From assembly GCA_033439295.1 (NCBI GenBank), contig JAVTLE010000017.1:558001-622000 (forward strand): a stretch of 64,000 nt of DNA, in the 5' to 3' direction. Origin of the DNA: Deuterostichococcus epilithicus. Its lineage: Eukaryota > Chlorophyta > Trebouxiophyceae > Prasiolales > Stichococcaceae. A model generated the notes under the pieces. That model was given only the letters and a program-made list of their open reading frames with translations. It was not told the DNA's origin and ran no database searches. The position numbers were made by a program, and so were the translations under genes. Below are positions 1,219-62,742 of this stretch, piece by piece (within the stretch, counting starts at the first letter, position 1; each line of letters begins with the position of its first letter).

Positions 1219-4200
1219 ATGCTGCCGGCGTCTGATGGGAGCGGCGGCACGCCCGTTGGCGGCGGCACCGCCGCCGGCGCCAATGCGACTCCAGGCGCAG
1301 CAGTAGGTGCCGGCGCCCCCCCTGGCGACCTTGACGGCTTCTTTGCGCAGGTCGCTGACATCAAGGTGGGCAGGAGCATTGCCTCTATTGAGGGCAATGT
1401 GGAACCTATCCGCATCAGACAATGCGCGGGCAGCTGGACGACTGAACGAGTGCCGCACTGATGCGAAGCCTGCCCGCAACCCATGCATTGCCTGGCACAG
1501 CTGTTCTAAGTGCGCCGCCGCCAGGCGCATGGGCTGCCGCAATGCACCCTGTGATGGCCAGGCGGCTGGGTAGGCAGCTTCGGGACACACACAATCGGCG
1601 CGTAAACACGACAGCAGAGATGTCAAATCGGATGCAGATTTCTGCTCCCCACCGGACCGCAAGATCTGTTGCTGGATAATTGGCAGGATCCAGGCGGCGG
1701 TAACAAACTCAGGACAGGAGCAGGGCATGCATGATCTCAGCCGCTTCTTGGCACATGCTGATTGACGGGGCAGTACTGGATGCTGGATGCTGGCTGCAGG
1801 AGGTGCTGCTGGACATCCGGCGGGGGCAGGCGGCGCTGCAGGCGGCGCACGAGCGGTCGCAGGTGGTGACGCGGGATGCCGACATGCGCGCCATCCGGCA
1901 GGACATGCAGGCGACTGCACTAATATCGCCTATGAAACGTCAAACGCTGAAACAAATCTGGTTGAATACGGCAGCAGCAGGCTGTCTCTTCTGCTCTAGC
2001 CGTCGCCAAGGCTTTGCCGGTCATTTGCCTGTTATGTGCATCAGCAAGCGGGCCCTGAACCCCTGAGACGCGCGGAAACTACATCGCTGCAGATGCGAGA
2101 AATAACCCAGAGATGAATTGTCGAACGCATTGTCGAATGCCAGCGCTGCTGATCGGATCTGTGATTGCTGCTGTTTCTGCCATGCACACACGGGGCAGAC
2201 GAAGGCCGCAGAGATGAACAGGGCGGCAAGAGAGCTCCCACCACCGCGCGTTCGTCGTATTCTTGAAAAAGCTTTCAACGATCCTTTGCCGCAACGCGCA
2301 GGCAGAGATTGCAGAGGTCAACCGCGCGGCAATCATCGTCAGGGCGCGGCTCGACGCCCTCGACACGACCAATCAGGCCATCCTGCTGCTACCCGTGCGC
2401 TTGTTTGCAGTGGTAGCTCGCAGCTGACAATAGGAATGAGACGGAGGGACTATGAAGGGCCTCAGGTGCCTGAGTGTACATTCCGGATAGAAATCTGCAT
2501 TTGACTCAATGCGGCAGTGTACTTCCACGCACTGGAGACGCCCTGCGCAGGGTTGTGCCCCACAGGTGCCAGGTGCATGCAGGCAGGCGAAAAAGACTAT
2601 GTCCCCGCTGCTGACGTGTACAACATCGGGCGCAGGGCCATGGTGCAGACAGCAGCAGCGCGCGGGTGCGCTCTGCTGTGACGGCGGCGCTGCGCACGAA
2701 GCTGCGGGACCTGGTGGGCGAGTTTCAGGCGATGCGGCAACGCATCCAGGACGAGTACAGGTGTGCAGAAGTAATGGGCAATAGAGTAAACCTAAAAAGA
2801 GGACACAATTGCGCTGTAAGAGCTGGTAGTGGGCGATCTTCAGGTGCTGCGGCACCGCATCTACAACAAGTACAGGTGACTATCACACAGTTTATATAGG
2901 ATCATCACCACATCCTGCAGTTGTAGTCAGCCGAGGTCGTTGCATTGAACAGGTCCTGCATTCATGCTGTATCTTGTGCGCATCCTGCACCGTGCACTTC
3001 ATCGTGTATATATGACATTCAGCAGAGATAGAGTGCTGAGGATGCGGAAGTGACCCTTATTCGCGGGTGCCCTGAGAGACCGCCAGAGTTGGGAGGCTAC
3101 TGCTACACCTGCGTGGCTGGAGCAGAGGCGAGTCAGCGTGGCGGCAGCTCATCAGCGGCATGAGGATGAGCGTTCGATTTTAGTCCGTCAAGTGCACCTG
3201 AGAAGACCGGCGTTTGTCAAAGAACTCGCTGGCGCTCAACTTCAGCAGGCCAGTGGAAGGACGGCTGCCGAATGAGGGCAATGCATGTGTACAGTTCAGC
3301 CTCATGCTGCCGCCACGTGCAGCAGCCTACTGCTGAAAGGTGATGTGGACGGCGGCAGAGTTGCCTCCTGGCGGGGAGGTGGTACAGTGACGAGTGTGCA
3401 CGGTCCCTGGCCAGCTGCCGGAACGGACGAGCAGATCTGTGCCAGCCGCCCACTCCTGATGACCTCTTGCAGACACTGCAGTCGTTATTTCAGTCAATAT
3501 TTCTTGTTTCAGGATTCGTCGATTCATCTCGCAGAGAGGTGGTGCAGCGGCGGGTGTACACCGTCACGGGAGAGCTGCCAGAGGAAGCCAAGGTGGAGGA
3601 GCTCATCGAGACAGGCGGCAGCGAGTCGATCTTTCGGAAAGCCATCCAGGAAGGCGGCGGCGCGCAGGTGGCTATTTATTGTTTGTCCATTTTCTGATCA
3701 GATTCCTAGAATACGTCAGTAAGGCTTTGCTGGGCTCGGCTCGGCAGCCACGGCTTTGTTCTGACCAGCATGTGCCTCCCTCTTCGTCGTTGATGGCAGT
3801 GAGTGCTGCAGCAGCGCCATGATCCAGCTGAGCAGTGGTGGGTGCGCGTATGATGCCACCGCCTGTTGCATTCAGAAAGATGCAGAGGTGCCTCGTCCCC
3901 GGCAGGGGCAACGACGCCACGAGCGCGACGACTCGACACAGGAGCTGGAACCAAACGCACCTGAAGTGCATCTCTCCTCTCGTTTTGGCCCAGGTGGCGG
4001 ACATGCTGGCGGAGATCCACGAGCGCTACGACGCGGTGCAGGACGTGGAAAAGGGACTGGTGCAGCTGCAGCTGGTCTTTGCGGTGCGCAACACAATGTA
4101 TATACAGTCGAAAAACAAAGTGATTTATACGTAGTCTATTTGCTATCAGCAGTGAGTCAAAGCACAAAATGCATGCTGCAAATTTGAGCCTGCGTGCTGT

Positions 4201-5412
4201 GCACAGCCAGCAGCTGCCACAGCCGCTAGGTCGGTCTCACTTCCGCAGCAGCTGCCGATGCTGTTGCTGATGTGGAAGACTTTGGCGCGCTGCGGCAGTA
4301 GACTGCCCTGGTCGTCAGCTCTGCCTTGAACAACACTTCGTCTGTTTCACCGAACTCCGAAGCAGGTCCCTCACCCTGCAGGCGATCAACTGCTGATTTG
4401 GCTGCACAGGACATGGCGGTGCTGGTGGAGGCACAAGGCGAGATGCTCGACAACATCGAGGCCCAGGTGACTTGCCCACAGATTCACAGGTTCACCACCC
4501 AGTCATCGAATTGTACTGCTTGAAGGGTCCTGCTGAATGGATGCCCGGACCTGCCCATCAAGAGTGGGCAAAGTAGCCTTCTGTGCCAGAGGGCGCTCAA
4601 GGTCGGAGGGTTTCCGATCGGTAGGATTGGATTTTGAAAAGAATTCCGTCTAGGTTGCTGACACCGGTCGTAGGTGGGCAGGGCGCAGGAGTACGTGCAG
4701 GAGGGGACATCCGCCATCGCGGATGCCAAGGTGTACAAGAAATCATGAGGCGATGATGACGCTGTGGGTTCTGTGCATTATATGTGGCACGTCACCTTGC
4801 ATGCGAATAGTTGCGAGAGGGCCAGCAGCCCCCGCCTGCAAACACTATGTGAGAGCACGTTTCCCGCCGATTATGACACGCCTTTGCCAACCATCCACCT
4901 TGCCACGACGGAAGTCTCGTCCGTCTGCAGTGGCGAGACTTGAGGCACTGCAATTGCGTACATGGCATCCAGCCGGCTGATGGGTTAATCTGCCTCCGCC
5001 TCCACAGGGCATCCAGAAGAGGACGCACAAGATGCAGTGCTGGCTGCTGGTCATTGTAAGTCGTTGTGATGGTCAGCGCATGCTCCGTTGCGTCACGGTC
5101 TACATATCGCACGGCACAGCAGCATCCTGTGCTCATGGCAGCAATTCGCATTTGACAAAAATTTCTGGCCTGGTGCGTGTGACACAAGATATGTCAGCCA
5201 CGTACGATGGGTCCGGTCGCAGAGTGACGCTTCACCTGGGTTTGTCATCGTTGCTGCTGGTGACCTCAGGCTCATGATCCCAGGTGTTGGTCATCATCGG
5301 CATCATCGTCGGCGTCACTATGCTCGTCCTGGCGCGCAGCTTTGGACCCCTTTGCATACAACTCGCGGCACGCCACTTGCAAACCTGTCGGCGAGACATC
5401 GCAATGAGATGA
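1219..5412 (+). CDS. Plasma-membrane-type syntaxin (SYP1 family Qa-SNARE)
   Basis: Qa-SNARE of the secretory/plasma membrane, one of the four helices that drive vesicle fusion. The 10 exons I infer are 1219-1365, 1800-1910, 2302-2394, 2636-2760, 3535-3667, 3994-4083, 4410-4466, 4674-4730, 5008-5055 and 5284-5412. All phases close, giving 329 aa. The order matches plant SYP1 proteins: Gly/Ala-rich N-terminus, DLDGFFAQV, Habc helices (NRAAIIVRARLDALD), VQRRVYTVTGE, the SNARE motif with EIHERYDAV and the zero-layer Gln in VEAQGEMLDNIE, a basic juxtamembrane patch QKRTHK, then a C-terminal membrane anchor (VLVIIGIIVGVTMLVLA). Unlike most SYP1s a basic tail of about 24 residues follows the anchor, so the last exon end is less certain. 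Intron 2 uses a GC donor (1911). Introns 4 and 5 hold degenerate copies of neighbouring exons. Confidence 0.88.
2818..2875 (+). repeat. Degenerate copy of syntaxin exon 4 (3' half)
   Basis: Lies in the intron after exon 4. It would read LVVGDLQVLRHRIYNKYR, parallel to LVGEFQAMRQRIQDEYR encoded at the end of exon 4 (about 2707-2760), and ends in the same AG|GT phase-2 junction. It could be a mutually exclusive alternative exon, but it lacks a partner for the first half of exon 4, so a decaying duplicate is more likely. Confidence 0.75.
3370..3445 (+). repeat. Degenerate copy of syntaxin exon 5 (5' half)
   Basis: The bases from 3376 (GAGGTGGTACAGTGACGAGT) parallel the start of exon 5 at 3536 (GAGGTGGTGCAGCGGCGGGT), and the similarity continues through the AGCTGCC segment. 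The copy has a stop in the exon frame, so it is not a usable exon. It sits about 160 bp upstream of the real exon, inside the same intron. Confidence 0.7.
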
Positions 5413-13459: not shown

Positions 13460-16400
13460 TCACAAGTCTTCGGGTCGCGACAGCTGGTGGTCGCCGTCCT
13501 GCAATCGCACATACCAAAATCAGCCAACTCTGGTCTCCAGCGGTGATCCATATAAAGTAGTGTTTGAGCTGCAGCCTGCGACTGTGCTGCGTCAGATCCT
13601 GTGTGCTTCCCTGCTTCACCTGCGCCAGGCTACGAGTATGCGCTCCATAATTGCTCCAGGCCAGCGCAGCGCACCTTGACCAGGGTGAGGTGCACGTCCT
13701 TCGACTCCAGCCACGCCACCACCTCGTTGGCCACGAAGGGCGGCACCACTGTGTCGGCGGCGCCCTGCAGGATGCGCACCGGGCACCGCACCTGCAAGGC
13801 TTTTTAGATTTTTAGCACCAAGAGGCAGGCTTTCCAAGGCTCGTGGTTCAGGGTGCATCCTGGGTTCGCCCGAGGGAGCGGACGGCAAGAGGCTGGGGCT
13901 GCGTCACAACACAGCAGGGCGGCTGGGCAGCGGCGGCGGCGGCGGCTGTGCGCCATGCCGGGTGGAGGGGCCCGCGAGGCGCGGCGGGTGCCGCGCCGCG
14001 GCGGGGCGCTCGCACCAGGAACGATACGTGCGGACTCCATGGCGGCGCCGCAGCGCCCGCGGCCTGTACAAAACACGCAGGCCCCAGCGGCGGACACCGC
14101 CCAGGCAGCTGGCGGCGCATGACGCGGCTGTGGACGCCCAGCGCGAAAGCTGTGTGCAGGCGGACATCTCCCACTGCAGTGCATAAGGCCTGTTGAAAAT
14201 GGCTTATGTGTGGGGATGCTGCCCCACCTGTGCGTCCCGCGCTGCAACGTCCAGCAGGCAGTGGTCCGACGCCTCGTCGAAGAACGAGGTGCGCACCCGC
14301 CCACCGTACTGCGCACAGCAATGCAGAAGCAAGGCCGTGTCAGCAGCTGGGATGAGCAGAAGCCAAGCTGGCTGCAGCGTGACGGCCGCAATGGAAAGGC
14401 GAGCCCTGCGCCATGCCGAGCGGAGCGGCTCCTTCTGCGAATGGTGGCGAGTGGATTGCATCGTGTGCTGGCCTTGGGTACAGGCTCTTTTCCTGTAGAG
14501 GGCACATGTCTGCCACCAGGAAAGGTAAGCTGTAGGATCAATGTTCGATCTGACATCATGCGCACGTCTGCGGGCTGATCTTGTGAAGGCTAGCAGCCAG
14601 TGCAACAGTACATCGGAAGACTGTCTCATGAGGCTCTTAGGAGGTCACCTTGGTGCCGCCGCCCAGGGGGACGAAGCCAGTGTCGTGCGCGTCCGCTTGC
14701 TCCTGGGATGACAGGGCGTCCCACCACACCTCTGTGATGTCCACCGCCGGCGCCAGCAGCACCAGACCCTGTGGCAGAAATGTGTCCTATTTTTTGTTCA
14801 ACAATTATCAATTAAATATGAACGGGATTTGTAAGTTTGCCCGCTGCCACTCCATGATGGCGGACGTTGGCGCCAGCAGTACATCAGAGCAGGGTACCAC
14901 CACACCATTGCAGTCACAAACGCCGGTGTCAGCAGCAACAGACCCAGAATTTAGGAGACCTAAATACAGGCCTAGGCCGCACGCCCATTGGTTCCTCTAC
15001 TGGCAGCAGGTCTGCCGCCTCTGGTGATGCCTGCCGCCGACAGAGGGCACTGTGCCCTGGGCCATGCGGCCAGGAGGCAGAAGCGGACATAGCCACTCTG
15101 CATATCCTGCCCTTGATGCGCAAGCAGTAGTAACCCTGCCCCGCAAGGCCCTCTGCAGCGTGCACTGCTACTGCCGGTCATCCCAGGGAGACACGTAGGG
15201 CGCGGCCCAGAGAGCACCGCACAAGGTGCTAATTCGCTCCTTGATGCTGCCGGCAGCCCGGTCCGCCCGGCGCAGCCAGGAGGCGATAGCAAGCCTGGCG
15301 CCCGTTTCGATGAAACGCGCTGCGAGCACGCAACTGAAAGCCCATTTGGGGTGTTGCTTTCAGACTCGCCTTGATGCGTTCCCGACGCGCCGCAGCTGCC
15401 TTCAGCGCAATCCAGCCGCCGATGGAGCTGCCGACCAGGATGTGCTGCCCCGGCAGCGCCACCTGATCGATAACTGCCAGGGTATCATCGTACCTGCGCA
15501 CAGATGACATCAGACTGCGCAACGTTTGTGCAGGTACATCCAGAGGTGGGACTTTTGCCACATGGGAATGCGGTAGATGTGGACAAGAGCCATGCGTCGC
15601 GCCCCCTCCCGCGCAATGCATGGCGAGCTCCGCACAAGTGACCAGCATTGCATTCCCTCCGCAGCACATGCCGTGTGCATGAGCCAGCTGACGGCCCCAA
15701 GAACAGACTCGCTGCTGCGGATGCCGCACAAACCCGCAAACAAGGACAGCACAGCCCTTGGTCGAATCTCTGGGTCGACTTTCTTCGTAAGCTCGGAGTT
15801 CAGTCTCCGTGGGAGAAGCCCACCAATCGCCGAGCGTGGTGTCGAGGAACTCGCCGCTGCTCGCGCCGTGCCCGCGGTAGTCGAAGCGCAGGTAGGGGTG
15901 TCGATTGCGCCGTGCGTGCATTTCCAGCATCGTCGCCTTGACGCCGTTCATATTGCTGCTGAGGCCTGCATGTTGGTAGGCAGCGACAAGCGGATATTTT
16001 TCAGCTGTTTCAGAGGAGATGCTGGCTACGCCGCGCATGCCTCTCCAGAATGGTCCGTGCACATCGATAATGTTGCCAGCCAGGCCTGGCGGCATATACA
16101 GCACGATTCTTGACTCTGGGAGTCATGACCCTTCAGAAACTGTCGGGATCCGGCATTGCTCTGTTGGTTCAAACGCGGTTGTTCTTGGCAGGTTCGTTGG
16201 TGCAGCATGTTGCGTGGCCACTGCGCGTGTGCCTGCAAGAAAACAGCTGGTGGCTGCCTAGAGGGCACTTTCGGCTGTTGGGCAATGCAGAGTGCCGTGT
16301 CACATTGCACCCCCCGCCGGAGGTGACACCTCTCGCGAAGGGCGAAGGAGGGCAGGTGAAGCCTCTTTTCGTTTCCAGGGGAAGACTCGCCTCCGCAGAA

Positions 16401-16688: not shown

Positions 16689-16721
<33 letters not shown>

Positions 16722-48686: not shown

Positions 48687-51600
48687 TCAACGGCGCGCCG
48701 GCCGATCGTAGGCATCTGCAGCGGGCGCCGCTGTCGGCGCCGCCAGGCTGCCGCTGTCACCAGTGTTTTGGGGGTGCTCAACCACCAGCCCATCCGCCAG
48801 CACCACCTGCTGCGGCGCTGCAGCCGCCGCCGCTGCCGCCTGCTGCAGGATCGCCATCGGCCCGGACGCCGCCACATGGTCGGCCTCCACTGACAGGTGG
48901 CTGCGCCCAACAACCAAGCCTTCTGAACACATCAGCTGTTTCAAACGGGCAGGTTCAATGAGCTCCGCAGTAGCGGCGGCAGAAGTCGCTCCAGTGGGCG
49001 GGCTTGCCGGCTGGCATCCATGCAGAGTCGCTGCCGCAGTCCGCTGCAGATGCTGTGCAGCCACCAAGGCAAGCTTGCGTCACTGCAAATTTTTGTGGCG
49101 CTAAGAGAAACGAATCGCACTCGGGTGCACCCGGGCACCCACCCTGAACCAGAAGCACACCCAGCAGGCTGCTCATGACGCCGGTGCCATGCATGAAGGT
49201 TATTAAGAATTTAAATAACCAATTTACAAGCCGGTGCCCGTCACTGCAGAGTTGGATCGCCGCAGAGAAGGTTGAGAGGCTGCTGGGTATGCAAGTCATC
49301 TTCCGGAACTGCCCAGGCCTGTTGCAAGGCTGCGCCTACAACCGCCGCCATATCAAGAGTCCAGCGCGGAGTGACCGATCTGCACGTTAATCTCGGCGGA
49401 ATACCACTCCCTCATCAAACCATTGCACGAGAGGCGATGGGCGTGAGACTCCAGTACGAGATTCAGTGCGTCAGTCTAGGCGAGGGCGATCGGTTTGCAG
49501 GGGCAACACATGCATGGAGGACGGCCTCACCTAGGCAGGAAGGTGTGGCCAATCGCGGCATCCTCCGGCGCAGTGGGCGCCGCGGCGCCTGCGGTTGCTT
49601 CCCTCACCCCCTGCTTCTCGAACGTGATCCTGCGGCAGAATTGGGCACAGCGCTCAGATGCCGCGCACCCAGCTTCCCGACCTGCAGTGCCTGGCGACGA
49701 GCGGGCAAAGCAGCCGCGAGCGCCTGCAGCCGCCGTCGCCAGGGCATGGATGGTGTTCACAGTGGGACAACTTCGAGCCATTGCTGCACGACAGAAACGT
49801 TGCACCTGGCCCTGTGTGGTTCCAGTCGGCCTGGCTGGCGATAGCCCAGGTCTCGGGGTCCCCGTGCATCGCCACACCCGGAAATGTCAGGTTTTGGGGT
49901 TATGACGCGTCATCAAACTGATGTGTATGTGTCACCTGAACTTGTGGATGAAGTCGGTGTGGTTGATGATGGCCCACGTGTCGGGGTCCACCCGCGCGGG
50001 GACGATGCGCTCATTGACGATGTGGGAGCCGCTGAAGCCGCGGTCGCTCAGCACGTCCAGAAGCATGTCCGGCGCCATGGGGTTGTCGATGAAAACCTGT
50101 GCAGCGAGAGAAAGAATTGGCTATGAACACCTGAGCAGCGGTGAATCAGCGGGCTTTGTGAGGACGGCAGCTCTACTCCATCAAGAGGTGATGCATTCGA
50201 CAGCATGCTGGGCGACGCCGGGTGCTTTGTGGACCCCTGCGCGGGTGTCGCAACACCATGTTGTCCGCTGAACTGTTTTGCACCTGACCCTCGTCTGCGG
50301 CAAGGTCGGGCTGCGCAATCGACTGCATGAGCGTCTGCGAGCGACAGTTGAGCGAAAGCCCAAGCCCTAAGCAGCAGTGTCATACACCATAGATCCAAAC
50401 GAATGCAGTCAGCATACGAATGGGTCGCACCTCGTCCTGCGTTTTGAACTCGGCGTGGCCCGCCAGCGAGCACTTGCGTAGCAGCGGCACCACCTGGGGG
50501 CAACCAGCAAGGGGCTCAGGCAACAGGAGTCGAGGACTGCTGCGCGATGGTCCAGGCCGCCGGCGCTGCAGCAGGTGTGCCCAACCCAGGCCCCACTTGC
50601 CGATCTCGGGTATCGCCCGCGGTCCATGGACCTTCTGTAGAAGTGTCCGAGGCCGGAGGTGCCGAGTCTAGGCTCCCAGGGGGGCAGTGCCAGGGGAGCG
50701 GCTGCGGTGCGGAAGAGTATGCAGCCCTCCGCGGTTTCGAGCGCCTGCGGATGGCATTTCCTACATTATGCGCCGCGGCCCTCACCTGCCCGTCGAGGAT
50801 GGCGAGCACGCGGCGGAAGACTGGCGCATTCTTCTTACTCATGTAGGAGTCCAGGCGGTGCACCAGCTGCTGCCGCGCCGCGCGCACCAGGTCTCGAGCC
50901 AGCGGCAGGTGCCTGCAGCGTTGCGGCGTCAAGAGGGGTTGGTTTGCCTGCAAGACTGCTCGGCTGTGAAGGGCAATGCCTTCTTGACCAGCAGCTGCCG
51001 CAGAGCAGCGCACGCGAGGTCCCGCACCAGCGGCAGGTGCCTGCAGAGGAACAAAGGCGATGAGCGAGGTTGCGTCGTCATGCAGGACGGTTGCTCGTTC
51101 CTAGCCATCTCTTCTTGCTGACAGGGTGTGAGAACAGAGTTTCCTCTCATAGCTGCGTGCGGCACCTGCTGCTAGCGAAGTTGTGACAGCGTTTCCTGTC
51201 ATCCACCTCACTCTCCAGTCACCCTTCCATTCATGCACGACCTTCAAAACTATCCTGGGTGCCTGAGAAGGTGTTCTGATGGCAGCGAAGGCGTGTTTGT
51301 CCGTGTCCACAACGACTGGCGCTGGAGAAGTTGCAAGCGCCTGGTGTTACCGAGAAGGGATTGTCGTATGCAACATTCCTAGCACACCTGATCGCGGCGT
51401 AGGTGTGCTCGTCCAGGTCCATGCTCGACTGGTAGCGCAGCTCCCGCTGGATCTGGCGGCGGCAGTCGTCCAGCGGCCCCATGGCGTCGATCAGGCTGAA
51501 GGGAAAGTGCTGCGGGGGCATGCAAGGACAGATTGCCGTCTTGCTAGAAGGTTGGGGGTCGTGAGAGGTCGAAAGTCAACCTCATTCAGGGTAGCGACAT

Positions 51601-54600
51601 TGGAGGTTCCCTGCGACGGAGCTGGCAAAGAGGCATCTCCGCTGCGGCCCGGGAATGATTGACATCGGCGTGCTTTCTGTGGGCAGACAGCTGTGCCAGC
51701 TTGCGGCAGGCATAGCAGGCAGACATGCACTCTGCGAGGTGAGGTCAAGCACCCGGCACCTGAGCAGGGCACCACTTCATGCAAAGCAGATTCCAGCAGT
51801 TTCATTATCGTTAATTTGAGCATTTCACCTGCTTGAGGCGCAGCAGCGTGCCGTAGTGCTCCCTGCAGGCACAACACCGCAGAGACAATTAGATTCTATT
51901 CTCAAACGTTTCGTTTTTCCAGCTCACCAGTGCTAAATGGGGGGCCGTCGAGCCCTGCGCACGCAGCACAGCAGGAATTTCTAATGTCAGAGGCAGCGGC
52001 TCTGCGCGTCATCTCCCAGTCGCCTGGCGGTCTGGGCATATGGAGCGGCGCGTAATCGGCGGCACCGTGCTCGGCCGTCGAGCAGCAGTAGTGTTGGCTA
52101 TCATTTGAACATGTCACAGCGCTCGGCCGGCACTTGGCCTCGTCAATGCAATTTCCCAACCAAACATGCATCCTCATTTGAGTGCAGTGCGGCGCCCCGG
52201 AGCACGTTCAGGATCTTGTTGTAGCTGAGCATTCACAGACTCACTTGAACACGGTGTAGCGCCCCCGGCACTTGGCCTCATCCACGTCCGTCGTGCGCAG
52301 CTCCCGCAGGTTGTCGCCCGTGCCCGCGTCCCTCGCGCGCCTGCAGACCATGTATACCCAATATTGTGGGTAGATCGGTCATGGTCAAGATGGCTTTGAT
52401 GAGGCGGCGGGCGGCACACCGCTGCGCAACTCACGCAGATCGTCGCCGCGTCCACATTGCGCCTGCAAGATGGTGGAAGATTTAGTGGATCTGAATACAT
52501 CCGAGAGGCACTGCTGGTGACATGAGAAGCTTTTGCAGGGCATGCTCCGCGCCCGCGACACTCCGCGCCACGGGTCAGTACTGTAGCTCTATCTCCTGTG
52601 TAACTATTGGGAACCCTGCATGGTATGCGCCTGGCCCGTCCTTGGCTGGGCAGCTGGCACAGGGCACTTCGGCATTGGCAGGAGCTCGCTGCCGGCGAGT
52701 GGCAGCACGATGGGAAACAAGCCGCCAACCGCCCGCAGTGGACCTGGCGGCACAACGCACGCCTTGCGACGACGATGCGGCATAAACACCGGAAGGCTGC
52801 AGAGACGTGTGACGCTCGAGCGCGCGAACACACTGGACATCGTGAACACATTGGACATCGTGATTCGACATCGCGATGAGCAGCCTGACGGCCACTGCAG
52901 GATTTGAAGAGGTTCCACACCCTGAGTGCTCTGGGGACTCACGTGTTGTGCAGCGCGGCAACCCGGGCGCGCGCCATCTGCCGCCGCACACTCTCCTCCT
53001 GGTCCACATACAGCACCACCACCTGCACACATCACAGGTTTTAGGGTTAAGAGTTTACCACTACAGTGTCGGGTCAGGCACCGGTAACCCCGAAGCCCCT
53101 GCTGCGAGGGACTCGGCGCCTGCCGCCGCCGCAGACTCTCCCTCCCAGTCCACCAAGCGCCACCATCTGCACCGGCGACAAGCGGCCTGGCGCCAGCACG
53201 GGCATGTGTGTCCAAGAAGGGAGGCATCCGAGGGCGCCTGAGCGTCCACCGGGCAGGAGCGTCCACGAGGCAGGAAGCAAGGGCAGTAGCGGAATTCGCC
53301 GCAGGGGAGCACGCGCCTTGAAGGAGGGGCGCGGGAAACGCGGCTCCTGCGGCGAGCCCGCATGGCGCAGGTGCAGCTCCAGCAGCTTGTCGTGCAGCAG
53401 CTTCAGGAAGTCCACCTGCACCGAGGTCAGAGGGTGCCGAGTGGCTTGGAGAGAGAGCACAGCCGGTGAGCTTGTGAGCTCGGCAGACGGGGTTCAGCCA
53501 CCGGCGCAGCAACGGCCTGGACATGGGCGAGCCAGGCAGCCCCAGTCAGCCTGCGTGTATGGCAGGTCCGCGCCGCTCCCCGCATTCGCCCAGCATTGTG
53601 TTTCGACTCGGATCGTGTCTAGGATGGGGACAGAGCAGCCGCAGGAGGCGCGGTCGTCATCAACGGTGGCCCCTTGCACCTTGCCAAACCTGGGGCCGAG
53701 CCCGTCGTGGGAATTATTGTGGCTGGAACCACGGTCGAAACGCACGCATGAATTACTTGAACGAAATCGTTACCATTGCATACATGTAATGAACACAATA
53801 TGCCAAAGCAGCACCTGCAGCGCGGTGCGGGGGAAGCCGTCGATGAGCACGCCTGAGCCGTCTGCGTGTGCGGGGTCGAAGATGTTGTTCAGCAGCGCGT
53901 CGCCGACCATGGTGTCGGGCACCAGCTCCCCCCGGTCCTTGATGGCCTTGATCTCGTCGCTGCTGTCCAGCAGCGAAGACCTGCAGGCCATGCGGGTCAG
54001 AACGATACAACCATCTGTATTTATGTGAATCATAACAGATGCGGTGCTTGATGGCCTCATTCTCGTCGCTGCTGTCCAGCAGCGAGGACCTGCAAAGCCA
54101 TGCAGGCCAGAACGAGAGGTTCAGAGCCGCATATGATTTGGTGATAATATGTCATGATAACAATAACAAACAAAACACATGGCCACTCGGTGGTGTCCAG
54201 CACTACCTCGCCCCCCGCTTGTGACGGCTTTCATCACAATGCAGCTGTCCTTGGCTCAGCCAGGCGTCCGTAGGGGTCCACATTTCCACACAATTCTGCA
54301 TCCCCACCGCTTCCGTATGTGCCGGGCCAGGTGGCTGGAGCCGGCATGCTGGAGGCATGCAGGCCATGCCGCAAGGTGAGCCGCTGCGAGTCTGTTTGTC
54401 AGATCATGGGCACCGCACGCAACGGCCGCGAGGCCTCCGGGCAATGCCGGCGTGCAGCGGCATGCACCCGCAGAGGCGCACCCGGTCCAGGAGAAGAGGT
54501 GTGGATGGGAAATGCCGCTCACATGGTGATGACGCGCAAGATGTTGTTTGGAGACTGGAAGGTTTTTAAATGCTGAATGGAGTTTTGGATGGGATCGTAG

Positions 54601-56395
54601 AAAGAGGAACACTGCTGCTCACATCGTGATGGCGCGCGAGATGCCGCGGGACTCCATGATGAAGGGCGTGTTGGCGCCTTTGCCCGAGCCGGGCGCCCCA
54701 TTCAGCCAGACCACCTCGTCCGGCGCCTGCATCGGCTGCGCAGCGGGCGGAAAAAGGCGCTTAATTTCATGCAGTATATATAGACCCAAGTAGACCACGT
54801 CGTGCTCCTTTCCGGCTCAGGTTATTATATAATTGGGCGCCCCATTCAGCCAAACCACCTCGTCAGGCGCCTGCAATGGCTGCGCAGCGGCCGGAAAGGC
54901 GCTTAGTGAGGGTGAGCACCCCTGATGGCCCCATGTCTTGCCATGCCACCTCGCTTGGTGCGTGCGTCACTTCAACCCTGAAAGCAGGAGCGTTTCAAAT
55001 CTCCTGTCGGAGCAGCGCTGGACCGCTGGTCGGACAGCTGCGTGCGCTGCGCCAGCACCGATGCGGCGGAAGGATCAGAGCCCAGGTCTGAGCGACCAGG
55101 GCTTGCACGTGCTGTTTGAACAGCCCTCGGGGCAGCGAGTCCTATGTGCCACAGCATGCCCAACAACGCCCGCGCCCGTGTAAGTCCGTGCTGCCACTAC
55201 TACCATGAGCAAGACGCCGCCTGCACTTTGCTGCAGCCTCTTGTCTTCATATGTGACCTATCTTCCCCCTGACCTTGACACGGCCTCAGCACACTCTTTA
55301 TCATTTGAGGGGGCTGAACTCCCCGCGCAACTCCATGATACAAGCTGTTGAAAGAGGTCTTGTCACAATCTCGAGTACTACCAGTTCATGGCGGATTGCC
55401 CATGCTGATCAGCGAGGCTTCCAGGTTCCGCCAGCAGGCGTGTCACGACCTGCGCCTTGATGCCAAGCTTGCCCGCGCCGTGCTTACATACTCTACAAAC
55501 CAAGCTGAGGGAATCTGACTCGCCTTGCCCATGCTGGTCAGCGAGTCTTCCAACTTCCGCCAGCAGGCGTCAAAGACGACCTGTGCCTTTATGGACACCT
55601 TGTCTGCGCCACCGATGTGGAATGCCCGCGGCCCAGAATGATCCGCCAGCGCCGCCTGCAACAAGCAGAGGGGCGGCTTTACTCAGTGCGCCGATGTGGG
55701 ACGCCCGCGGCCCAGTGAACAGTCCGCCGATCGCGGCTGCAAAGAGCGATATGTGTTGGTGGCTTCAGCTCGGCATGCTGCATTGCAGGCATTCTGTATG
55801 GGGCCAAAGATGTTGAAGGCCCGCAGTTTGAATGGTTCGCCCACGCCGCAGGTGAGGAGGGAACCATCTGGAAGGCAGTCCAACACTGTGCGGTGCGGGG
55901 TAGGCGACAATCCGGCAGCCGGCTGACAGCAAGCGCGACGATAATCAGGGATGGCGTGATGCGGCCCAAAACATTTCGCACCTGCTGCGACGAGTTCGTT
56001 CGCTGCTGCAGGTGTGCGCCGGTCTGCTGCTTCGGGGGGCTGCCGCCGTCTGGGCTGCCAGGCGCCCAGGGCTTAGCCGCCGCCGCCATCAGGGAATCGT
56101 ACCAGTAGCCCCGCTGCTGCTGGCTGCTGGCCATGCCCAGACCCGCCTGAGACGGCACATTTGGAGGTGACACACATGCATGCGAGCCAGAGATCGGTGT
56201 CGTAACCAGCAATGGCAAGTTGGTGTCGCCGTCATGGTGCACCTGTCTTCAGTAGACTAGTGCTTACGCAGTGAGCACCTGTGAGATGGCGTCCGATTGT
56301 CCGGCTGCGGTCGCATCCCCTCGCAATGCTACGCCGGTGCTGCTGAACCGCACCGCGCTGGCAGCAGCAGTGGCAGCTGTGGGAGCCGCCTGCAT
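48687..56395 (-). CDS. Adenylate-kinase-like P-loop NTPase, probably organellar
   Basis: The 15 exons I infer are 56395-56279, 56146-55982, 55655-55524, 54726-54623, 53980-53815, 53415-53317, 53022-52943, 52340-52245, 51862-51829, 51509-51388, 50912-50786, 50493-50431, 50096-49936, 49629-49608 and 48935-48687. Phases close to 578 aa. An Ala/Ser/Arg-rich N-terminus suggests a transit peptide. The kinase part has the P-loop in WLNGAPGSGKGANTPF, then SSLLDSSDEIKAIKDRGELV, the NMP-binding LIDGFPRTALQVDFL, VVLYVDQEESVRRQMARAR and a LID-like RTTDVDEAKCRGRY. After it comes a conserved plant/algal extension (HFPFSLIDAMGPL, LRYQSSMDL, VLSDRGFSGSHIVNERIVPA) of unknown role. Introns after 55524 and 53317 have GC donors. 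Exon 14 is 22 nt. The last exon is Ala/Gln-rich and its link is the least certain. At least seven exons have degenerate neighbours. Confidence 0.85.
49830..49885 (-). repeat. Degenerate copy of AK-like exon 13 segment
   Basis: TAGCCCAGGTCTCGGGGTCC at about 49843 resembles TGGCCCACGTGTCGGGGTCC at about 49970 in the exon 50096-49936, followed by CCGTGCATCGCC against CCCGCGCGGGG. It lies 127 bp away in the next intron. Confidence 0.7.
51000..51045 (-). repeat. Degenerate copy of AK-like exon 11 start
   Basis: CCAGCGGCAGGTGCCTGCAG occurs both at the exon boundary (about 50899) and here, with matching CGCGCACGCGAGGTC-like flanks. It is about 127 bp upstream in the preceding intron and includes the acceptor. 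Confidence 0.8.
52085..52150 (-). repeat. Degenerate copy of AK-like exon 8 end
   Basis: CGGCACTTGGCCTCGTCAAT resembles CGGCACTTGGCCTCATCCAC at the end of exon 52340-52245, and the flanking TTTGAACA...CAGCGC is also shared. It is about 160 bp downstream in the next intron. Confidence 0.75.
52420..52472 (-). repeat. Degenerate copy of AK-like exon 8 start
   Basis: The block ACTCACGCAGATCGTCGCC...GCGCCTGCAAG resembles AGCTCCCGCAGGTTGTCGCC...GCGCCTGCAG at the 5' end of exon 8. Exon 8 thus has partial copies on both sides. Confidence 0.7.
53038..53165 (-). repeat. Degenerate copy of AK-like exon 7 with telomere-like tract
   Basis: Segment 53110-53165 (CTGCCGCCGCCGCAGACTCT, CCCAGTCCACCA, CACCATCTGCAC) resembles exon 53022-52943 (CTGCCGCCGCACACTCT, CTGGTCCACATA, CACCACCTGCAC). 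Between them at 53038-53054 lies TTTTAGGGTTAAGAGTT, similar to TTTAGGG telomere units. Confidence 0.7.
54045..54115 (-). repeat. Degenerate copy of AK-like exon 5 start
   Basis: TCGTCGCTGCTGTCCAGCAG followed by CGAGGACCTGCA repeats the start of exon 53980-53815 (CGAAGACCTGCA) at a spacing of about 110 bp, including the acceptor and downstream AGAACGA. Confidence 0.9.
54500..54545 (-). repeat. Degenerate copy of AK-like exon 4 end
   Basis: GCCGCTCACATGGTGATGAC resembles GCTGCTCACATCGTGATGGC at the exon 4 donor (about 54615). It lies downstream in the next intron. Confidence 0.65.
54833..54897 (-). repeat. Degenerate copy of AK-like exon 4 start
   Basis: GCGCCCCATTCAGCCAAACC and the following ACCTCGTCAGGCGCCTGCA repeat the P-loop exon start (54726 leftwards) about 145 bp away, with few changes. 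It includes the acceptor. Confidence 0.9.
55375..55462 (-). repeat. Degenerate copy of AK-like exon 3 end
   Basis: CTTCCAGGTTCCGCCAGCAG and flanks repeat exon 55655-55524 (CTTCCAACTTCCGCCAGCAG) at about 130 bp spacing in the following intron. A third partial copy of the exon start lies at 55676-55725 (GATGTGGGACGCCCGCGGCC). Confidence 0.88.
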
Positions 56396-57414: not shown

Positions 57415-57463
57415 GCATCGTGCGCAACATTGACGATGACTCGTCAATGTTGTGCACGGATGC
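57415..57463. repeat. Long hairpin upstream of FT-like PEBP
   Basis: Arms of about 22 bp (57415-57436, GCATCGTGCGCAACATTGAC plus GA) and 57441-57463 are near-perfect reverse complements around a TGAC loop. Confidence 0.88.
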
Positions 57464-57480
57464 ATGTGGGAAGGTAGTCA

Positions 57481-57522
57481 TGCATGCAGTCGGCGCTGCA
57501 GACTGTGCAGATGAAGTCATTG
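57481..57522 (+). repeat. Degenerate copy of PEBP exon 1 segment
   Basis: GCAGTCGGCGCTGCAGACTG resembles GCAGTCGGCGCTGCAGAACT at 57588 in exon 1, 103 bp away. It begins with its own ATG. Confidence 0.75.
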
Positions 57523-57546
57523 CGGGCTTGCGTCAAGCGCTCAGTC

Positions 57547-59320
57547 ATGCAACAAGCTGACAACAACTCCTCTGCAATTGTCGCGCAGTCGGCGCTGCAG
57601 AACTCGGGCATCGTGCCAGACGTCATTGATGGAGTCGACGTGGAGGAGGCGGTGGAGATGACCGTCAAGTACCCCAAGCACACCGTCACCAATGGCAACC
57701 TCATTCCTAAGGAAGATGTGAGTTCAAAATCTGAGACCTAGACGCCGTGGTTCAAGCGACCGACCCCATCTCTGCCTTCTGCACTGGATGCTGGTAGCAG
57801 CACTGGTGACCAAGACGCGCTGGTCGATGCAAGCCACGTGCGGTGCTAGGGCTGCAAATGACGGAGGACCATGGTAGTGAGTTACGGTAGTGAATTATGG
57901 ACTGGACTGCAAATTTCAGGCACAGGAGGAGCCGAAGGTTGAGATTATGGGCAAGGGTCTCTACACCCTGGTGAGCTTTGCATCTAGGGCGCTCAAATCC
58001 CCTGAAACCTGGCGCGACCGCTATTGTTCTACCTGCTGCTGAAGGTCTTCAGGCACACCTCTTTGCGCATGATTGCAGTGAACCGATGCCTCGCCAGCAA
58101 ATGATCCGAACTCGTGAGATGACTGATGGATCGCCCACGCAGATCATGAGTGACCCAGATGCGCCCTCCCCAGGTAGAGAAGTTATTACTCGCTCCTCAC
58201 ATCTTGTGTGGCCAGCTTATTATGAAGGCTTCTTTCCTTCTTTTCTTTAGCTTTTCTTTTGAGGTTGCTTTTCTTCGCCCTCCCCAGACGACCCAAAGTG
58301 GCGAGAATTCCTGCACATGTGCGCGCTGCTCCCCCTCCTGCAACTTATCACTTGCTCTTCACATCCTGCGTGGCCAGCTCATTCTGAGGTTGACTCAGCT
58401 TTTCTTCACATCCAGGCTGATCACCAATATCCCGGACGGTGACTTGTCCAAGAGCAAGGTGCGATGCTATCATTGCCCCGTCAAAACCCTGCTGAAAGTA
58501 CTACATGTATACAACAGCTTGCTGCTTCCGCGCAGCCACTTGCCATACTACACGTCTGGGCCCCAAGGGCTGCCCCATACGTCTTTCAGAAACCAGCCGT
58601 GACTGGAAACTGCTGCTGTTCTGCGCGTCCAGGTTGTGGTGCCGTACACGGGGCCAGCGCCGCCGACGGGCACACACCGTGAGCTGTTCGTTAGCCCTGG
58701 AAAGCCGCAGCGCAGCCAGTGCCACACCCTCCCGTCCGACCATGCACATCCACGCGTGTCCTACTGTGTCATCAGTGCACGTTTATGTGTGACATGGCGA
58801 CGTGCTGTGTTGTATTATGCGCAGGGTACGTGTTCACGCTCTGGCGCCAGACCCCGTCCGGCGACCCCAACACGATCGCCAAGGAGGATTGGGACCACCC
58901 TGTCGAGGTGAGTGTGATGCCATGTATTGATACACCCACGACTTCAATGAACAAACCGAACATTGACGAGGGTGGGACCGCCCTGTCAGAGGGGGACTCC
59001 CCCGCCGACTCTCGTGACCTGTCAGCAAACAGCACATCTGCCATCTTAATTCGACTGCCGTGCTAGCATGCTGATACAGCAGCCGTCGACATGCACAAGC
59101 GCAGCGCCTGCTGGGCCTTGCCTTTGTCCAATAAACTCTTGCTTCAGCAGCAAAGATTCGCCATCTGGGAGCGCCATGCGGTTTAACAAGATTCAACAAA
59201 AATGCCATTCTGCAGGCATCGGCGCCAGAGGACCGCAAGTGCTTCAGCTCTCGCAAATTTGCCGCGGAGCACAAGCTGCGCGGCCCCGTGCGTGTCAACT
59301 TCTTCTACAGCGAGCCGTGA
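57547..59320 (+). CDS. FT/MFT-like PEBP (phosphatidylethanolamine-binding protein)
   Basis: Cytosolic PEBP of the plant FT/TFL1/MFT superfamily. Exons 57547-57717, 57920-57970, 58143-58173, 58288-58318, 58416-58458, 58633-58678, 58825-58907 and 59216-59320; phases close to 186 aa, about the family length. Motifs: SGIVPDVIDG, SDPDAPSPDDPKWREFLHM, LITNIPDGDLSKSK, YTGPAPPTGTHRYVFTLWRQ and the end RVNFFYSEP. The split of the D-P-D-A-P-S-P segment over two 31-nt exons is unusual. The start is uncertain; an earlier in-frame ATG lies in the duplicated segment at 57484. A TGTAA at 59633 may be its polyadenylation signal. Whether it signals flowering-like photoperiod responses, as algal FT-like proteins are proposed to do, cannot be said. 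Confidence 0.87.
58174..58400 (+). repeat. Tandem duplicated intron segments in FT-like PEBP
   Basis: Intron 58174-58287 and intron 58319-58415 share a core (CACATCTTGTGTGGCCAGCT against CACATCCTGCGTGGCCAGCT). Exon 3 ends in CGCCCTCCCCAG and the next acceptor is the same CGCCCTCCCCAG. The unit repeats at roughly 145-150 bp. Confidence 0.85.
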
Positions 59321-59950
59321 ACCGCGCTCTGAGCCTGGGAGCAGATCAGGCGAGCAGCATCAGCAAGCATCAGGACCTCACGGGTGGATGCGCTCTGACG
59401 CCAGCATTGGGTGCTGATTGGTGACTGGCAGCTCACCATATACGCACAAATCTTTGCTTGTGATTCGTTGCCGAGTTTTTCTTGATAGCCTACTACCTAC
59501 TGGCATTGCGTGAAACGCCTTTGGAATGCCTCTAGGGCGAAGGGACTTGGGGCTGCCGCTTTTTCGGAAAAACAAAGCTGGGTGAGCTGTTATGCTTCGA
59601 TGGCGTTGGGAGAGGGGTGCATCATGTCAGGGTGTAACAGGAATAGGGCAAACGCATTTTGCGTAGAAACGGCTAAATCTGACGTACGAGTACCGGAACA
59701 ATCAAGCGTTTTCTGTTCACTAGCAGCATGTCCGGGGGACGAGCTGGCATGCAACAAGGCCAGTGCAACCGCGCTTATTCGTAAGCCGCTAACACATCAT
59801 GCAGCTGCCATACGCCGACCTGCACTAGGTGCAAGGCCGTTCCAACAAGTGCATCTGCTCCATCCAAACAATCATCTGACGGTGGCGCGATGGGCAGCAG
59901 CAGGCTGAGCCCTGGGCTCTCCCCGGTCAGCACAGAGGCTGCCACTTCCA
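59321..59950. other. Intergenic; contains a copy of the TerC last exon
   Basis: Convergent 3' flanks of the FT-like PEBP and TerC genes. Segment 59880-59938 repeats part of the last TerC exon. No gene seen. Confidence 0.5.
59880..59938 (-). repeat. Degenerate copy of TerC last exon
   Basis: GATGGGCAGCAGCAGGCTGA and the following CCGGTCAGCACAGAGGC repeat the exon at 60090-59951 at about 90 bp spacing. It lies beyond the stop, in the 3' flank. Confidence 0.88.
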
Positions 59951-62742
59951 TCAGTCCTCGTCCGCCGGCGGCGGCACGATGGGCAGCAGCAGGCTGAGGC
60001 CCACGCCGCCGGTCAGCACCGAGGCGACCACCGCCAGACTGAGCTGCGTGCTGACGCCGACGCCTCCAAACTCCGCAACCATCTTCAGGCCTGCAGCAGC
60101 CACACGCTGCATCAAGTTCGGTGCGAAATCCTTTGGGCGCTCAAGCAGGCGTCAACAGCCGCCAGATGTGAGAGTCCTCCTCGGCAGCAGGGTGCTCCAG
60201 CAGGCCCAGCGCACAATACACCAAATGCAGCTCGTCGGCGGATACGCCGTCAGAGGGAGGCAAACTCACCAGCTTGTTCAGGAAGCGCATGATGTGGCAG
60301 ACAGCAGGCAAGACCTTGGTGCACGGTTGGGCTGGAAAGCACTTTCAAATGGGCTCTTTCAATTACAGATAAGAGCTCACCCACAAAGCCCAAAACGAGG
60401 GCCACCGCCTTGTTGAGGAAGCGCAGCTCGCCCATGATGCCCGCCACGAAGCTGTACAGTCCCCGCAGGCTGAGGATCGCAAACAGGTTGGAGCTGTACA
60501 CGATGAAGGGGTCCTTCGTGACGCCAAACACCTGCGGGGAAACACAGGGGGTTTCAGCAATTGGTGCGCAGCAACTCGCAACAGCCGGGAAAATGGCTGG
60601 AACCTTGCACACGATGAAGGGGTGCGTCGTGACGCCAAGTCACCTGCGGGGCGGCAGAAACGATGGGAAATCTGCCAGGCTGTCAGGTGGTAAAGCTGTC
60701 ATGCGGTTATGCAGTGGGGCAGTCGAGCAGCAGGAGCGCTGCGCGGGGGCTGGCACAGGGGGGGGCGGCGCAGAAGGGGGCCTTCCATGTCAGGCGCATC
60801 TAATCGGCCGAACCGGTTCGAGCGCATACAGCCTCAGGGTTGTCATGTGCAACGTGTCGCGGGGGATGCCAGACGTGCACAGCACAGTGCGTCGGGCCGA
60901 GGCGGCATGCAGCAAAAGTGCAAGGACACCTGAAGCGCCAACACCGAGTTACACGCAAATCACACGCCGTTTGACAGCTCCATGACCGCAAGCACTGGTG
61001 TAAGACGGCGACCAACATGCAGTCGAGCGGGGGGGCACCCACCGCCGGCACCGAGTCGACGGCAAAGACGACATCCGACAGCTCAATGACCGCGAGCGCC
61101 AGCAGCAGCGGCGTCGCGATGCGCTGCCCGTTTTGCACCGTGAAGAAGTTGTCGCCGTCGTAGGTGTCGGACACCGGGATGAAGCGTCTGCAGAAAAGTG
61201 CGGAAGTAGACCTCAGCCTTGGCGAGAGGCAGGGCGCGGCTCTGTGATGGCGTCAGCCATCATGGGAGGGGAGCTAGGTCCCAGGTTTGCATGGCAAGCT
61301 GCAGCCCATAGCCCGCACGCGGGTTGCAGTGGACTGAGCGCCCTGGTGGACGGCAGCAGCAGCCAGTCAAGCGCTGCGAGTCCGGCAGGGCGCTCAGAAC
61401 CTATTTCTGCCTACCGGCAAGTCTTCACGATGAAGTTGTCCGTCAGGTCCTCGTCTTCATCCTCCTCGCCCGCCGTCAGCAGCTTGACGGCGGAGAAGAT
61501 GAGGACACCCGCGAAAACGAGCAGGATCGGCTGGAAGTTGGCGATGAGCTCCGAGCCGACCAGGATCATGATTGCACGCAGCACCGCCGCGGAGATGAGC
61601 CCGTAGGACAGCACCTGGAGGGGATTGGGTTCAAGGTTTAGGGCACCCGGCGGCGTGGAGGACTGCGTCTGCCACTGCCAGAGGCCAGTGCTGCCAGGGC
61701 TGTTATGTACACCTGGATTGCGGCACACCGCATCGTGGTGCAGCGCCGCATCTGCACCTCAACCACAGATGCGCCAGTGCAGATGAGCATGTGCAGCCAA
61801 CATTGCCGTGCATGGCATGCCGTGGTGTGAAGGCCGCTCGCTCAAAAACTTCCATCTGCACGCCGCCAGAGGCTACAGTACACGCCCCTCTGTCCACCTC
61901 CCATCCGCTGTGGAACAGCCAGCCAGCAATGTGTCAGTGCCAGCAGCGTTTTGCACCACTCACCTTGGGCTGGTCCTCGCTCGGAACCTTGAGGTAGTTG
62001 AAGACCAGGATGAAGACAAACAGGTTGTCCACGCTGAGGCTCTGCTCCAGCAGATATCCCGCAAAGTACTCCGCCCCCTTCTCCGGTCCCAACGTGTACC
62101 AGACTCCGGCGCCGAACGCAATCGCAGCGGCAACGAGACCAAAAACGAGCTCGCCGCGGTCTTCGATTATGATCTCGGCGCTGGAGACGCTCTCCAGCGC
62201 CTCGATCTCCTCCGCCGTCGACATGAGGGCGGGCCGAGGCCGGCTGCCGTTGGCGTGCTGCCGCACGGGCACATCCGCCGCCGCTGGCCATGCGGCGCTG
62301 TCAGCGTCTGCGGGCGCGCCGCTGTTGGTGGCTGTCGAGTCCGCCTCCCGCTGCGGTGCGGCGGCGCACGCCAGCAGACCGCCTGGCTGCTGCCTCGTGG
62401 CCCGAATCTGAACCACACGACCAGAGCACCATTTGCACCAGATGTGATGTGGACAAACACGACTCGACGATCAAACGGTGCTCGTCCACGCGTCTCAGAC
62501 GACAGAGAATGAGCGTGTGATATGGGACTGAAGCGGCAGTGGAGCGCAACAGGAAACGGGCGTTAGCTCGCCTGGCTGCGGGTGGCTGCGAGTGCACTGG
62601 TCGTACACGGCCTGCTGCTGCTGCGGGCGACGCCGGAGCCGCAGCATTGCTGCAACTGGTTCTCTGAGGCTGACGGCAGGCTCAGCCTCTGATGGTGCCG
62701 CAGCAGCGTCGCTGCTGCGTTTGTCACAGCGAGGGCTGCCAT
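59951..62742 (-). CDS. TERC: Chloroplast TerC-family integral membrane protein
   Basis: TerC-domain protein of the plastid; the land-plant homologue is needed for thylakoid biogenesis, and related bacterial proteins move metal ions. Exons 62742-62572, 62407-61964, 61614-61415, 61187-61043, 60531-60381 and 60090-59951; phases close to 416 aa. The N-terminus (MAALAVTNAAATLLRHHQRL...) is a clear transit peptide. The TerC core follows: GYLLEQSLSVDNLFVFILVF, LRAIMILVGSELIANFQPIL, VFAVDSVPAVFGVTKDPFIV, LRGLYSFVAGIMGELRFL and a last helix VVASVLTGGVGLSLLLPIV. The paired acidic motifs in the two repeats (SVDN and FAVDS) are intact. An acidic loop EEDEDEDLTD separates the halves. Intron 1 uses a GC donor (62571). 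Degenerate exon copies lie near 60267, 60612 and 59880. Confidence 0.93.
60260..60300 (-). repeat. Degenerate copy of TerC exon 5 3' segment
   Basis: CCAGCTTGTTCAGGAAGCGC resembles CCGCCTTGTTGAGGAAGCGC in exon 60531-60381, about 135 bp away in the next intron. Confidence 0.7.
60608..60660 (-). repeat. Degenerate copy of TerC exon 5 start
   Basis: CACGATGAAGGGGTGCGTCG followed by TGACGCCAAGTCACCTGCGGGG repeats the 5' end and acceptor of exon 5 (60500-60540) at about 110 bp spacing. Confidence 0.88.
61628..61647. repeat. Telomere-like intronic tract
   Basis: GGTTCAAGGTTTAGGGCACC contains one perfect TTTAGGG unit. It lies just upstream of TerC exon 3. A single unit could occur by chance. Confidence 0.3.

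What the first reader, a model, noticed from the sequence alone, without database searches (positions are those of the whole stretch)
1219..62742. Widespread degenerate partial copies of exons beside their own exons
Almost every multi-exon gene here has diverged fragments of its own exons in the adjoining introns or 3' flank. I found about 25 by eye in syntaxin, ABHD10-like, DAG lipase, the unknown 345-aa gene, the permease, the AK-like gene, FT-like PEBP and TerC. Spacing is usually 100-150 bp, the copies often include the splice acceptor, and some form arrays of 3-4 units. Most have lost frame, so they are not classical mutually exclusive exons. This points to a continuing local tandem-duplication process that feeds intron growth or intron gain. 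I know of no described system that matches it exactly, though tandem-duplication models of intron birth are established.
Basis: partly seen in the sequence, partly recalled or inferred. Interest (0 to 1): 0.85.

Follow-up and report, generated by a model that had tools for sequence, protein, structure and literature searches.

The report
Exon-edge copies lodged inside neighbouring introns
In this alga-like genome short stretches that straddle an exon-intron border are often duplicated right beside themselves, and the spare copy seems to decay harmlessly inside the intron and lengthen it.

Summary
In 244 kb (window plus 18 loci; two low-complexity loci dropped) 47 distinct local direct pairs were refined, 18 of them in the window. 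Shifts peak at 100-140 bp. Inverted matches, shuffles and swapped flanks give almost none.

Most pairs join an exon edge to a copy in adjoining noncoding DNA. Of 720 self-predicted exon edges, 62 carry a copy at 60-180 bp, against 9, 5 and 6 in three equal control bands. Donor and acceptor edges are about equal. The copies show no coding constraint: 24 of 29 pairs have frame-shifting gaps. The signal is uneven: 44 of 268 edges on the window's contig, 19 of 528 elsewhere.

Best reading: short local duplications straddling splice sites, probably from break repair, survive because splicing hides the spare copy. They appear to lengthen introns; intron gain is not shown. The geometry is published for one potato gene (PMC4974935). 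The abundance and the centring on splice sites are unusual. Homology covers mainly the exon-side half of each unit, and noncoding-noncoding pairs are too rare; a plain tandem duplication does not fully explain either.

The parts
2691..2763 (+). syntaxin-gene exon 3' end with donor; intronic copy at 2810-2878
   Evidence: same frame as the Pfam Syntaxin match, whose second stretch is not located there; matches the exon of the L021 paralog
2810..2878 (+). decayed intronic copy of the syntaxin exon edge
   Evidence: (id 0.74)
3368..3422 (+). decayed intronic copy of the next syntaxin exon start (exon copy 3528-3582)
   Evidence: id 0.75
3528..3582 (+). syntaxin acceptor plus exon start, partner of the copy at 3368-3422
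   Evidence: Pfam Syntaxin best stretch is 3527-3646
14712..14769 (-). exon start; intronic copy at 14890-14945
   Evidence: id 0.74
18510..18534 (+). noncoding copy of exon start 18611-18635
   Evidence: id 0.96, 25 bp
23078..23476 (+). local repeat, shift about 117-123, about 64% identity
25108..25338 (+). acceptor-side tandem pair 25108-25215 / 25217-25338; homology spans nearly the whole shift
25893..26098 (+). donor-side pair 25893-25968 (exon end) / 26021-26098 (noncoding by reading of frames); the inferred intron to about 26126 would be only about 32 bp without the unit
   Evidence: reading of frames, no RNA; the HMM calls part of the copy coding
32718..32872 (-). acceptor-side pair 32718-32770 (exon) / 32821-32872 (copy)
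   Evidence: id 0.76
33990..34467 (-). exon start 33990-34081 with an array of copies at shifts of about 137, 269 and 388
45753..45900 (-). probable amino-acid transporter exon end 45837-45900 and copy 45753-45815; spacer 45816-45836 is telomere-like (CCTAAACCCT)
   Evidence: telomere AAACCCT; Aa_trans matches on both sides
49803..49997 (-). donor-side pair 49933-49997 (exon) / 49803-49867 (copy)
   Evidence: id 0.73
50862..51084 (-). acceptor-side pair 50862-50952 (exon) / 50987-51084 (copy)
   Evidence: id 0.71
53933..54115 (-). adenylate-kinase-like acceptor plus exon start 53933-54005; intronic copy 54042-54115
   Evidence: id 0.88; Pfam ADK match 53815-53961 overlaps the exon
54508..54643 (-). 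donor-side pair 54606-54643 (exon) / 54508-54543 (copy)
   Evidence: id 0.84
54691..54905 (-). P-loop-like exon start 54691-54763 (acceptor plus about 45 bp of exon) and intronic copy 54835-54905; 71-bp unique spacer
   Evidence: beyond this pair neither part was found elsewhere in the genome
55396..55610 (-). donor-side pair 55525-55610 (exon) / 55396-55479 (copy)
   Evidence: id 0.80
58180..58406 (.). noncoding-noncoding pair 58180-58247 / 58342-58406
59859..60025 (-). donor-side pair 59947-60025 (exon) / 59859-59939 (copy)
   Evidence: id 0.75
60481..60651 (-). TerC-gene acceptor plus exon start 60481-60539 and intronic copy 60590-60651
   Evidence: id 0.82; Pfam TerC match 60370-60531 overlaps the exon

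Best explanation
Short stretches (about 80-180 bp, typically 120) that straddle a splice site are duplicated in place, in direct orientation, probably when a staggered break is filled in and rejoined (inferred). Splicing keeps using the outer, original site, so the spare exon-edge copy falls into the intron (inferred; no RNA). There it is invisible to the mRNA, lengthens the intron by about one unit (supported, not proven) and decays without coding constraint (shown). Duplications inside an exon would break the frame and are lost; those wholly in noncoding DNA fade faster because both copies drift (inferred). The size and centring would then come from a filter: each splice site needs about 45 bp or more of normal intron beside it (inferred).
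For: Direct only, local, sized. 62 of 720 exon edges against 9, 5 and 6 in equal controls; donors and acceptors alike. Mismatches in 29 exon-noncoding pairs by codon position of the exon: 73/497, 72/499, 110/499, as if the copy branch were unconstrained; 24 of 29 have frame-shifting gaps. In 36 of 62 hit edges the noncoding gap is longer than under the same rule elsewhere (372 against 257, P about 0.001). Some pairs match over nearly the whole shift, as a tandem duplication should (25108, L012 8946, L024), and the first two spacers of L021's three-copy array match (z 6.0). Spacers are unrelated to each other and the one searched is single-copy, so no mobile element. Exon part of the match: median 54 bp, quartiles 44-62; the copy lies a median 67 bp from its edge, at least 45 bp in 26 of 29. 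Precedent in potato. Breaks with complementary overhangs give small tandem duplications (PMC8355091, passages).
Against: In most pairs the spacer shows no match to the flank of the noncoding copy, even at 88-90% copy identity (54691, 53933). In one search only 5 of 37 beat all six controls (5.3 expected), although the mean is raised (t 3.1) by a few pairs (L021 6959, 54508, L017 9222). Noncoding-noncoding pairs are too few: 5, against 29 exon-noncoding pairs, where a simulation under uniform births expects 1.46 to 1. The exon share of the unit is above 0.67 in 1 of 29 pairs, where uniform break points expect 0.36; the filter offered for this is a guess, weakest for donors. Over all 62 hit edges the gaps are not longer. 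No kin genome and no RNA were available.
Confidence: 0.58

Rival explanations
1. Staggered-break repair with filler: two nicks 25-110 bp apart, both ends filled in, unrelated filler joined between them. The result is duplicate-filler-duplicate, not a plain tandem repeat.
For: Sharp ends and unrelated spacers in high-identity pairs. One spacer is telomere-like, CCTAAACCCTTACCCTAA, and 2 of 4 contig starts carry AAACCCT repeats.
Against: Match length and spacer length are negatively correlated over 47 pairs (-0.36), as if the total were fixed, though the shift limits of the search favour such a sign. Some spacers are homologous to the flank. It does not by itself explain exon edges.
Confidence: 0.25
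2. Old tandem duplications whose exon-side halves are refreshed by short-tract gene conversion from the conserved exon, so that the copy looks younger than the spacer and noncoding pairs vanish.
For: Spacers look older than copies (L021 6959: copy 95%, spacer poorly alignable). The same syntaxin exon carries copies at shift 114 in one paralog and 115 in the other; in L021 they are 92-93% like their own exon while the two exons are 84% alike.
Against: The window's intronic copy is about as like the L021 exon (0.83 ungapped, 8 gaps) as its own exon (0.79), so conversion is not visible there. Independent duplication is equally possible.
Confidence: 0.2
3. The copies are functional alternative (mutually exclusive or decoy) exons.
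For: Read by eye, the splice dinucleotide is intact in the noncoding copy in 28 of 33 pairs that I could call (uncontrolled, and biased by where alignments end).
Against: No codon constraint; 24 of 29 with frame-shifting gaps. Many copies end mid-exon.
Confidence: 0.05
4. A mobile element (introner-like) carrying or generating the repeats.
For: Narrow size range, many loci.
Against: 39 spacers of 18 bp or more share nothing but one 10-base match between two of them, and none matches elsewhere in 264 kb except 22 bases beside its own place in L014. The one spacer searched in the whole genome is single-copy. The duplicated part is the local exon.
Confidence: 0.02
5. Assembly artefact (haplotypes joined end to end).
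For: No reads were available to exclude it directly.
Against: Copies span 66-96% identity, carry frame-shifting gaps, form arrays of 3-4 and recur at similar shifts.
Confidence: 0.03

Closest known systems
[quoted passage not shown] abstract and results section read)
   Same: The duplicated unit holds the 3' part of an intron and the 5' part of the next exon, with putative branch site, pyrimidine tract and AG copied. An 83-bp tandem duplication inside intron 1 is also reported.
   Different: One gene, with the second copy kept as exon and a new intron. Here many exon edges, donors as well as acceptors, and the spare copy appears lost into the old intron.
AGGT tandem-duplication model of intron creation (Rogers, named in PMC4974935; Hellsten, Gao and Lynch, cited in PMC3443670, passages read)
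   Same: Local duplication of exon sequence.
   Different: There the new intron equals the shift and coding sequence lies on both sides. Here the outer flank of the copy is noncoding in most pairs.
Small tandem duplications at breaks with complementary ends (PMC8355091, passages read; it cites Vaughn and Bennetzen 2014 for rice, not held)
   Same: Short direct local duplications with a plausible enzyme route.
   Different: Introduced there as insertions under 100 bp, and the passages seen name no link to exon edges; here most shifts are 100-140 bp and at exon edges.
Newly gained introns in Daphnia (PMC4202315, search listing only)
   Same: Recalled: duplicated sequence flanking inserted sequence at repaired breaks.
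   Different: Recalled: the repeats there are only a few bp and the insert becomes a new intron.

Membership tests
Tandem genomic duplication across an exon-intron border | Two local direct copies containing a splice site | tested here: met
   splice sites read from HMM and sequence, no RNA
Tandem genomic duplication across an exon-intron border | Copies adjacent, homology over the whole shift | tested here: inconclusive
   Met in a minority (25108, L012 8946, L024, L017 6736, part of the L021 array); not seen in most
AGGT intron-creation by duplication | Shift equals intron length, coding on both outer sides | tested here: not met
   As a general rule: outer flank of the copy noncoding in most pairs; gap exceeds shift by more than 20 bp in 36 of 62 hit edges. 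Single cases are not excluded (25893).
Mutually exclusive exons | Both copies open and under coding constraint | tested here: not met
Mutually exclusive exons | Both copies spliced into mRNA | not testable with these tools
   no RNA data
Introner or other mobile element | Shared sequence at many places | tested here: not met
   one spacer and one copy searched genome-wide
Staggered-break fill-in | Duplicate ends with unrelated filler | tested here: inconclusive

The most novel reading that the evidence does not exclude
A mutational process aimed at splice junctions: a unit of about 120 bp centred on the exon-intron border (about 54 bp exon plus about 67 bp intron) is copied again and again into the intron, at donors and acceptors alike, with chromosomal hot regions. 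Exon-intron borders, or the splicing machinery working on them, would then be a target of DNA breakage and a steady engine of intron growth.
Probability: 0.2. Interest if true: 0.85.

Novelty: new variant of a known kind. Interest (0 to 1): 0.52.

Why it matters
Intron growth is usually credited to mobile elements (recalled). Here a compact genome shows another likely source, visible at about 4% of exon edges outside the window's contig and 16% on it: pieces of the gene's own exon borders. Because the exon gives the starting letters, the copies can be dated, so the genome offers a clock for small local duplications and a test of whether splice junctions attract breaks. It also warns annotators, since such copies look like exons.

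Tried and rejected
Mobile element as source: rejected in this sample. Coding constraint on copies: rejected. Intron creation by AGGT duplication as the general rule: not met. Plain tandem duplication for all pairs: not supported, because spacers lack homology in most. Recent paralogs to read ancestral states: none for L017; the larger window query was not scored. The syntaxin paralog in L021 gave one comparison. Edges that seem to begin at the branch point (an idea of reverse-transcribed lariats) were seen by eye in a few acceptors and dropped: constraint on the working splice site explains them as well. An early impression of no shifts under 80 came from BLAST and was corrected. A first length test of introns kept only gaps longer than the shift among hits; one search repeats it with the same rule on both sides, the difference shrinks but stays (P about 0.001), and over all 62 hits there is none. 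Contig-wide enrichment: only one C15 locus (L017) is independent of the finding's own region, so a whole-chromosome effect is open. Thresholds were set after seeing the data; the held-out check (1 of 76, 0 in controls) is too small to confirm. Literature: nine searches and passages of the Coccomyxa genome paper (PMC3446292; 12 of 15 places shown) gave no report of genome-wide exon-edge copies in introns of an alga; most subscription papers are not held, the Chlorella genome paper among them.

Rows dropped: L020 and L023 (low complexity) from the pair and edge counts, L023 alone; two duplicate rows of the 49; 18 of 47 pairs left out of the codon test by the coding rule; 26 of 62 hit edges left out of the length test. 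Exon edges come from a self-trained HMM. Pfam confirms only a few exons: no family, in 2 of 3 frames, in 5 of 6 and in 1 of 6.

Full report
What was examined. The window is bases 558001-622000 of contig C15 in a 46.8-Mb, 21-contig genome with no kin held. I took 16 loci of 10 kb from 16 contigs, four more including both neighbours of the window, four contig starts and three held-out loci. Two of the four contig starts carry AAACCCT repeats. Together with GC content and gene set this suggests a green alga, but that name is recalled, not tested.

The repeats are real. Self-comparison of the window and 16 loci gave 29 direct matches of at least 40 bits at shifts of 80-180 and 10 at 200-400. At shifts of 20-400 it gave no inverted ones, and three local shuffles gave none. 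Because BLAST can drop near-diagonal matches, I repeated the search without gaps. With L023 left out, the count per 10 bp of shift is 12-18 at 100-140, 3-8 at 50-100, 1-5 at 140-240 and about 0.3 at 600-1000; below 50 simple repeats dominate. Refinement gave 49 rows, 47 distinct, in 244 kb with L020 and L023 left out. Matched stretches are 25-150 bp, and spacers 0-121 bp.

They sit at exon edges. A seven-state coding HMM was trained on the genome itself. Of 47 pairs, 29 join an exonic to a noncoding copy, 13 were exonic in both by the HMM (read by eye, several of these are misread copies or in-frame repeats), and 5 were noncoding in both. A scan of all 720 confident exon edges found a copy at 60-180 bp in 62, with 9, 5 and 6 in three equal further bands and 0 in a narrower one. 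It found 35 of 356 acceptor and 27 of 364 donor edges, and 53 of 70 shifts at a slightly lower threshold lay at 100-140. Flanks swapped between edges gave 0 of 2130, and reverse-complemented flanks 1 of 720.

They look like passengers. Between exon and noncoding copy, mismatches fall at 73/497, 72/499 and 110/499 for codon positions 1, 2 and 3 of the exon. This fits free decay of the copy plus some silent change in the exon; 24 of 29 pairs have a gap that breaks the frame. Where the noncoding gap beside the exon exceeds the shift by more than 20 bp (36 of 62 hit edges) its median is 372 bp, against 257 bp for other edges held to the same rule (P about 0.001). Taken over all 62 hit edges the gaps are not longer (217.5 against 233.5), in part because the HMM calls some copies coding and so cuts the gap. 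Lengthening by about one unit is thus supported, not proven.

Anatomy. At acceptors the matched part is up to about 60 bp of intron end, the AG, and about 50 bp of exon; at donors it is about 50 bp of exon and up to about 30 bp of intron. Over 29 pairs the exon part has median 54 bp (quartiles 44-62) and the shift 119 (104-130). The exon share exceeds two thirds in only 1 of 29, where random break points would give about a third. The copy lies a median 67 bp from its exon edge (quartiles 53-76), at least 45 bp in 26 of 29 (my sums from the rows). Base composition agrees: GC is low in the first 60 bp beside 469 edges and rises at 60-100 bp. Protein families confirm the syntaxin exon at 3528-3582, the adenylate-kinase-like exon at 53933-54005 and the TerC exon at 60481-60539. 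The syntaxin exon at 2691-2763 rests on the HMM, the frame and its paralog.

How it works. Local duplication of a stretch spanning the border leaves the mRNA unchanged if the outer site stays in use, so such events can drift to fixation. Events inside exons mostly cannot. Events in noncoding DNA lose their likeness on two branches. This accounts in part for the exon edges and for neutral decay. It does not fully account for two facts. First, spacers rarely match the flank of the copy, even where copies are 88-90% alike. They do in the first two spacers of L021's syntaxin array (z 6.0; the other pairs of that array 2.9 and -1.5), in L021 6959 and in nearly gapless tandem cases such as 25108. 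Second, a simulation expects 1.46 noncoding pairs per exon-edge pair, and there were 5 against 29. Both say that noncoding likeness vanishes faster than twice the rate of the copy, or that part of the unit is filler, or that exons refresh their copies. One spacer, 45816-45836, is telomere-like, as filler at a break could be. I cannot choose among these without relatives.

Uneven over the genome. Edges with a copy: 38 of 233 in the finding's region, 6 of 35 at 1.0 Mb on the same contig, 18 of 452 on other contigs, and 1 of 76 held out. On the other contigs the excess remains (18 against 3, 0 and 4 in the control bands). Base composition and gene density of C15 loci are not unusual.

Known or new. 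The potato RdRp paper (abstract and results section) describes one duplication with the same geometry, where it made a new intron. The review PMC3443670 and PMC8355091 (passages) give the duplication and break-repair models. In nine searches I found no report of a genome-wide set of exon-edge copies in introns. I file it as a new variant of a known kind: the kind of event is known; its number, its two-sided centring on splice sites and its apparent outcome (growth rather than gain) are not in what I read.

Noticed in passing
L021:5851-9284 and window:1258-4469: A second syntaxin-like gene lies about 5 kb upstream of the window's own, in the same orientation. Its matching exon has three copies with unit 114 while the window's gene has two at 115.
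   Followed up: partly
contig C15 (window, L017, L021, L022): Exon-edge copies are about five times as frequent as elsewhere (44 of 268 against 19 of 528). Only L017 is independent of the finding's own region.
   Followed up: partly
L023:890-3880: A 3-kb run of proline-rich coding repeats that swamps local repeat scans; L020 also has low-complexity repeats.
   Followed up: no
window 45816-45836; L019:86; L020:2455; L022:3631; L014:8617: Short internal telomere-like stretches (TTTAGGG type), one of them in the spacer of a duplication.
   Followed up: partly
window 25893-26126: The inferred 160-bp intron would be about 32 bp without its duplicated unit, so here the duplication may have made the intron (by reading frame only).
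   Followed up: partly
469 exon edges in 244 kb: GC dips in the first 60 bp of noncoding DNA beside exon edges and rises again at 60-100 bp on both sides.
   Followed up: partly
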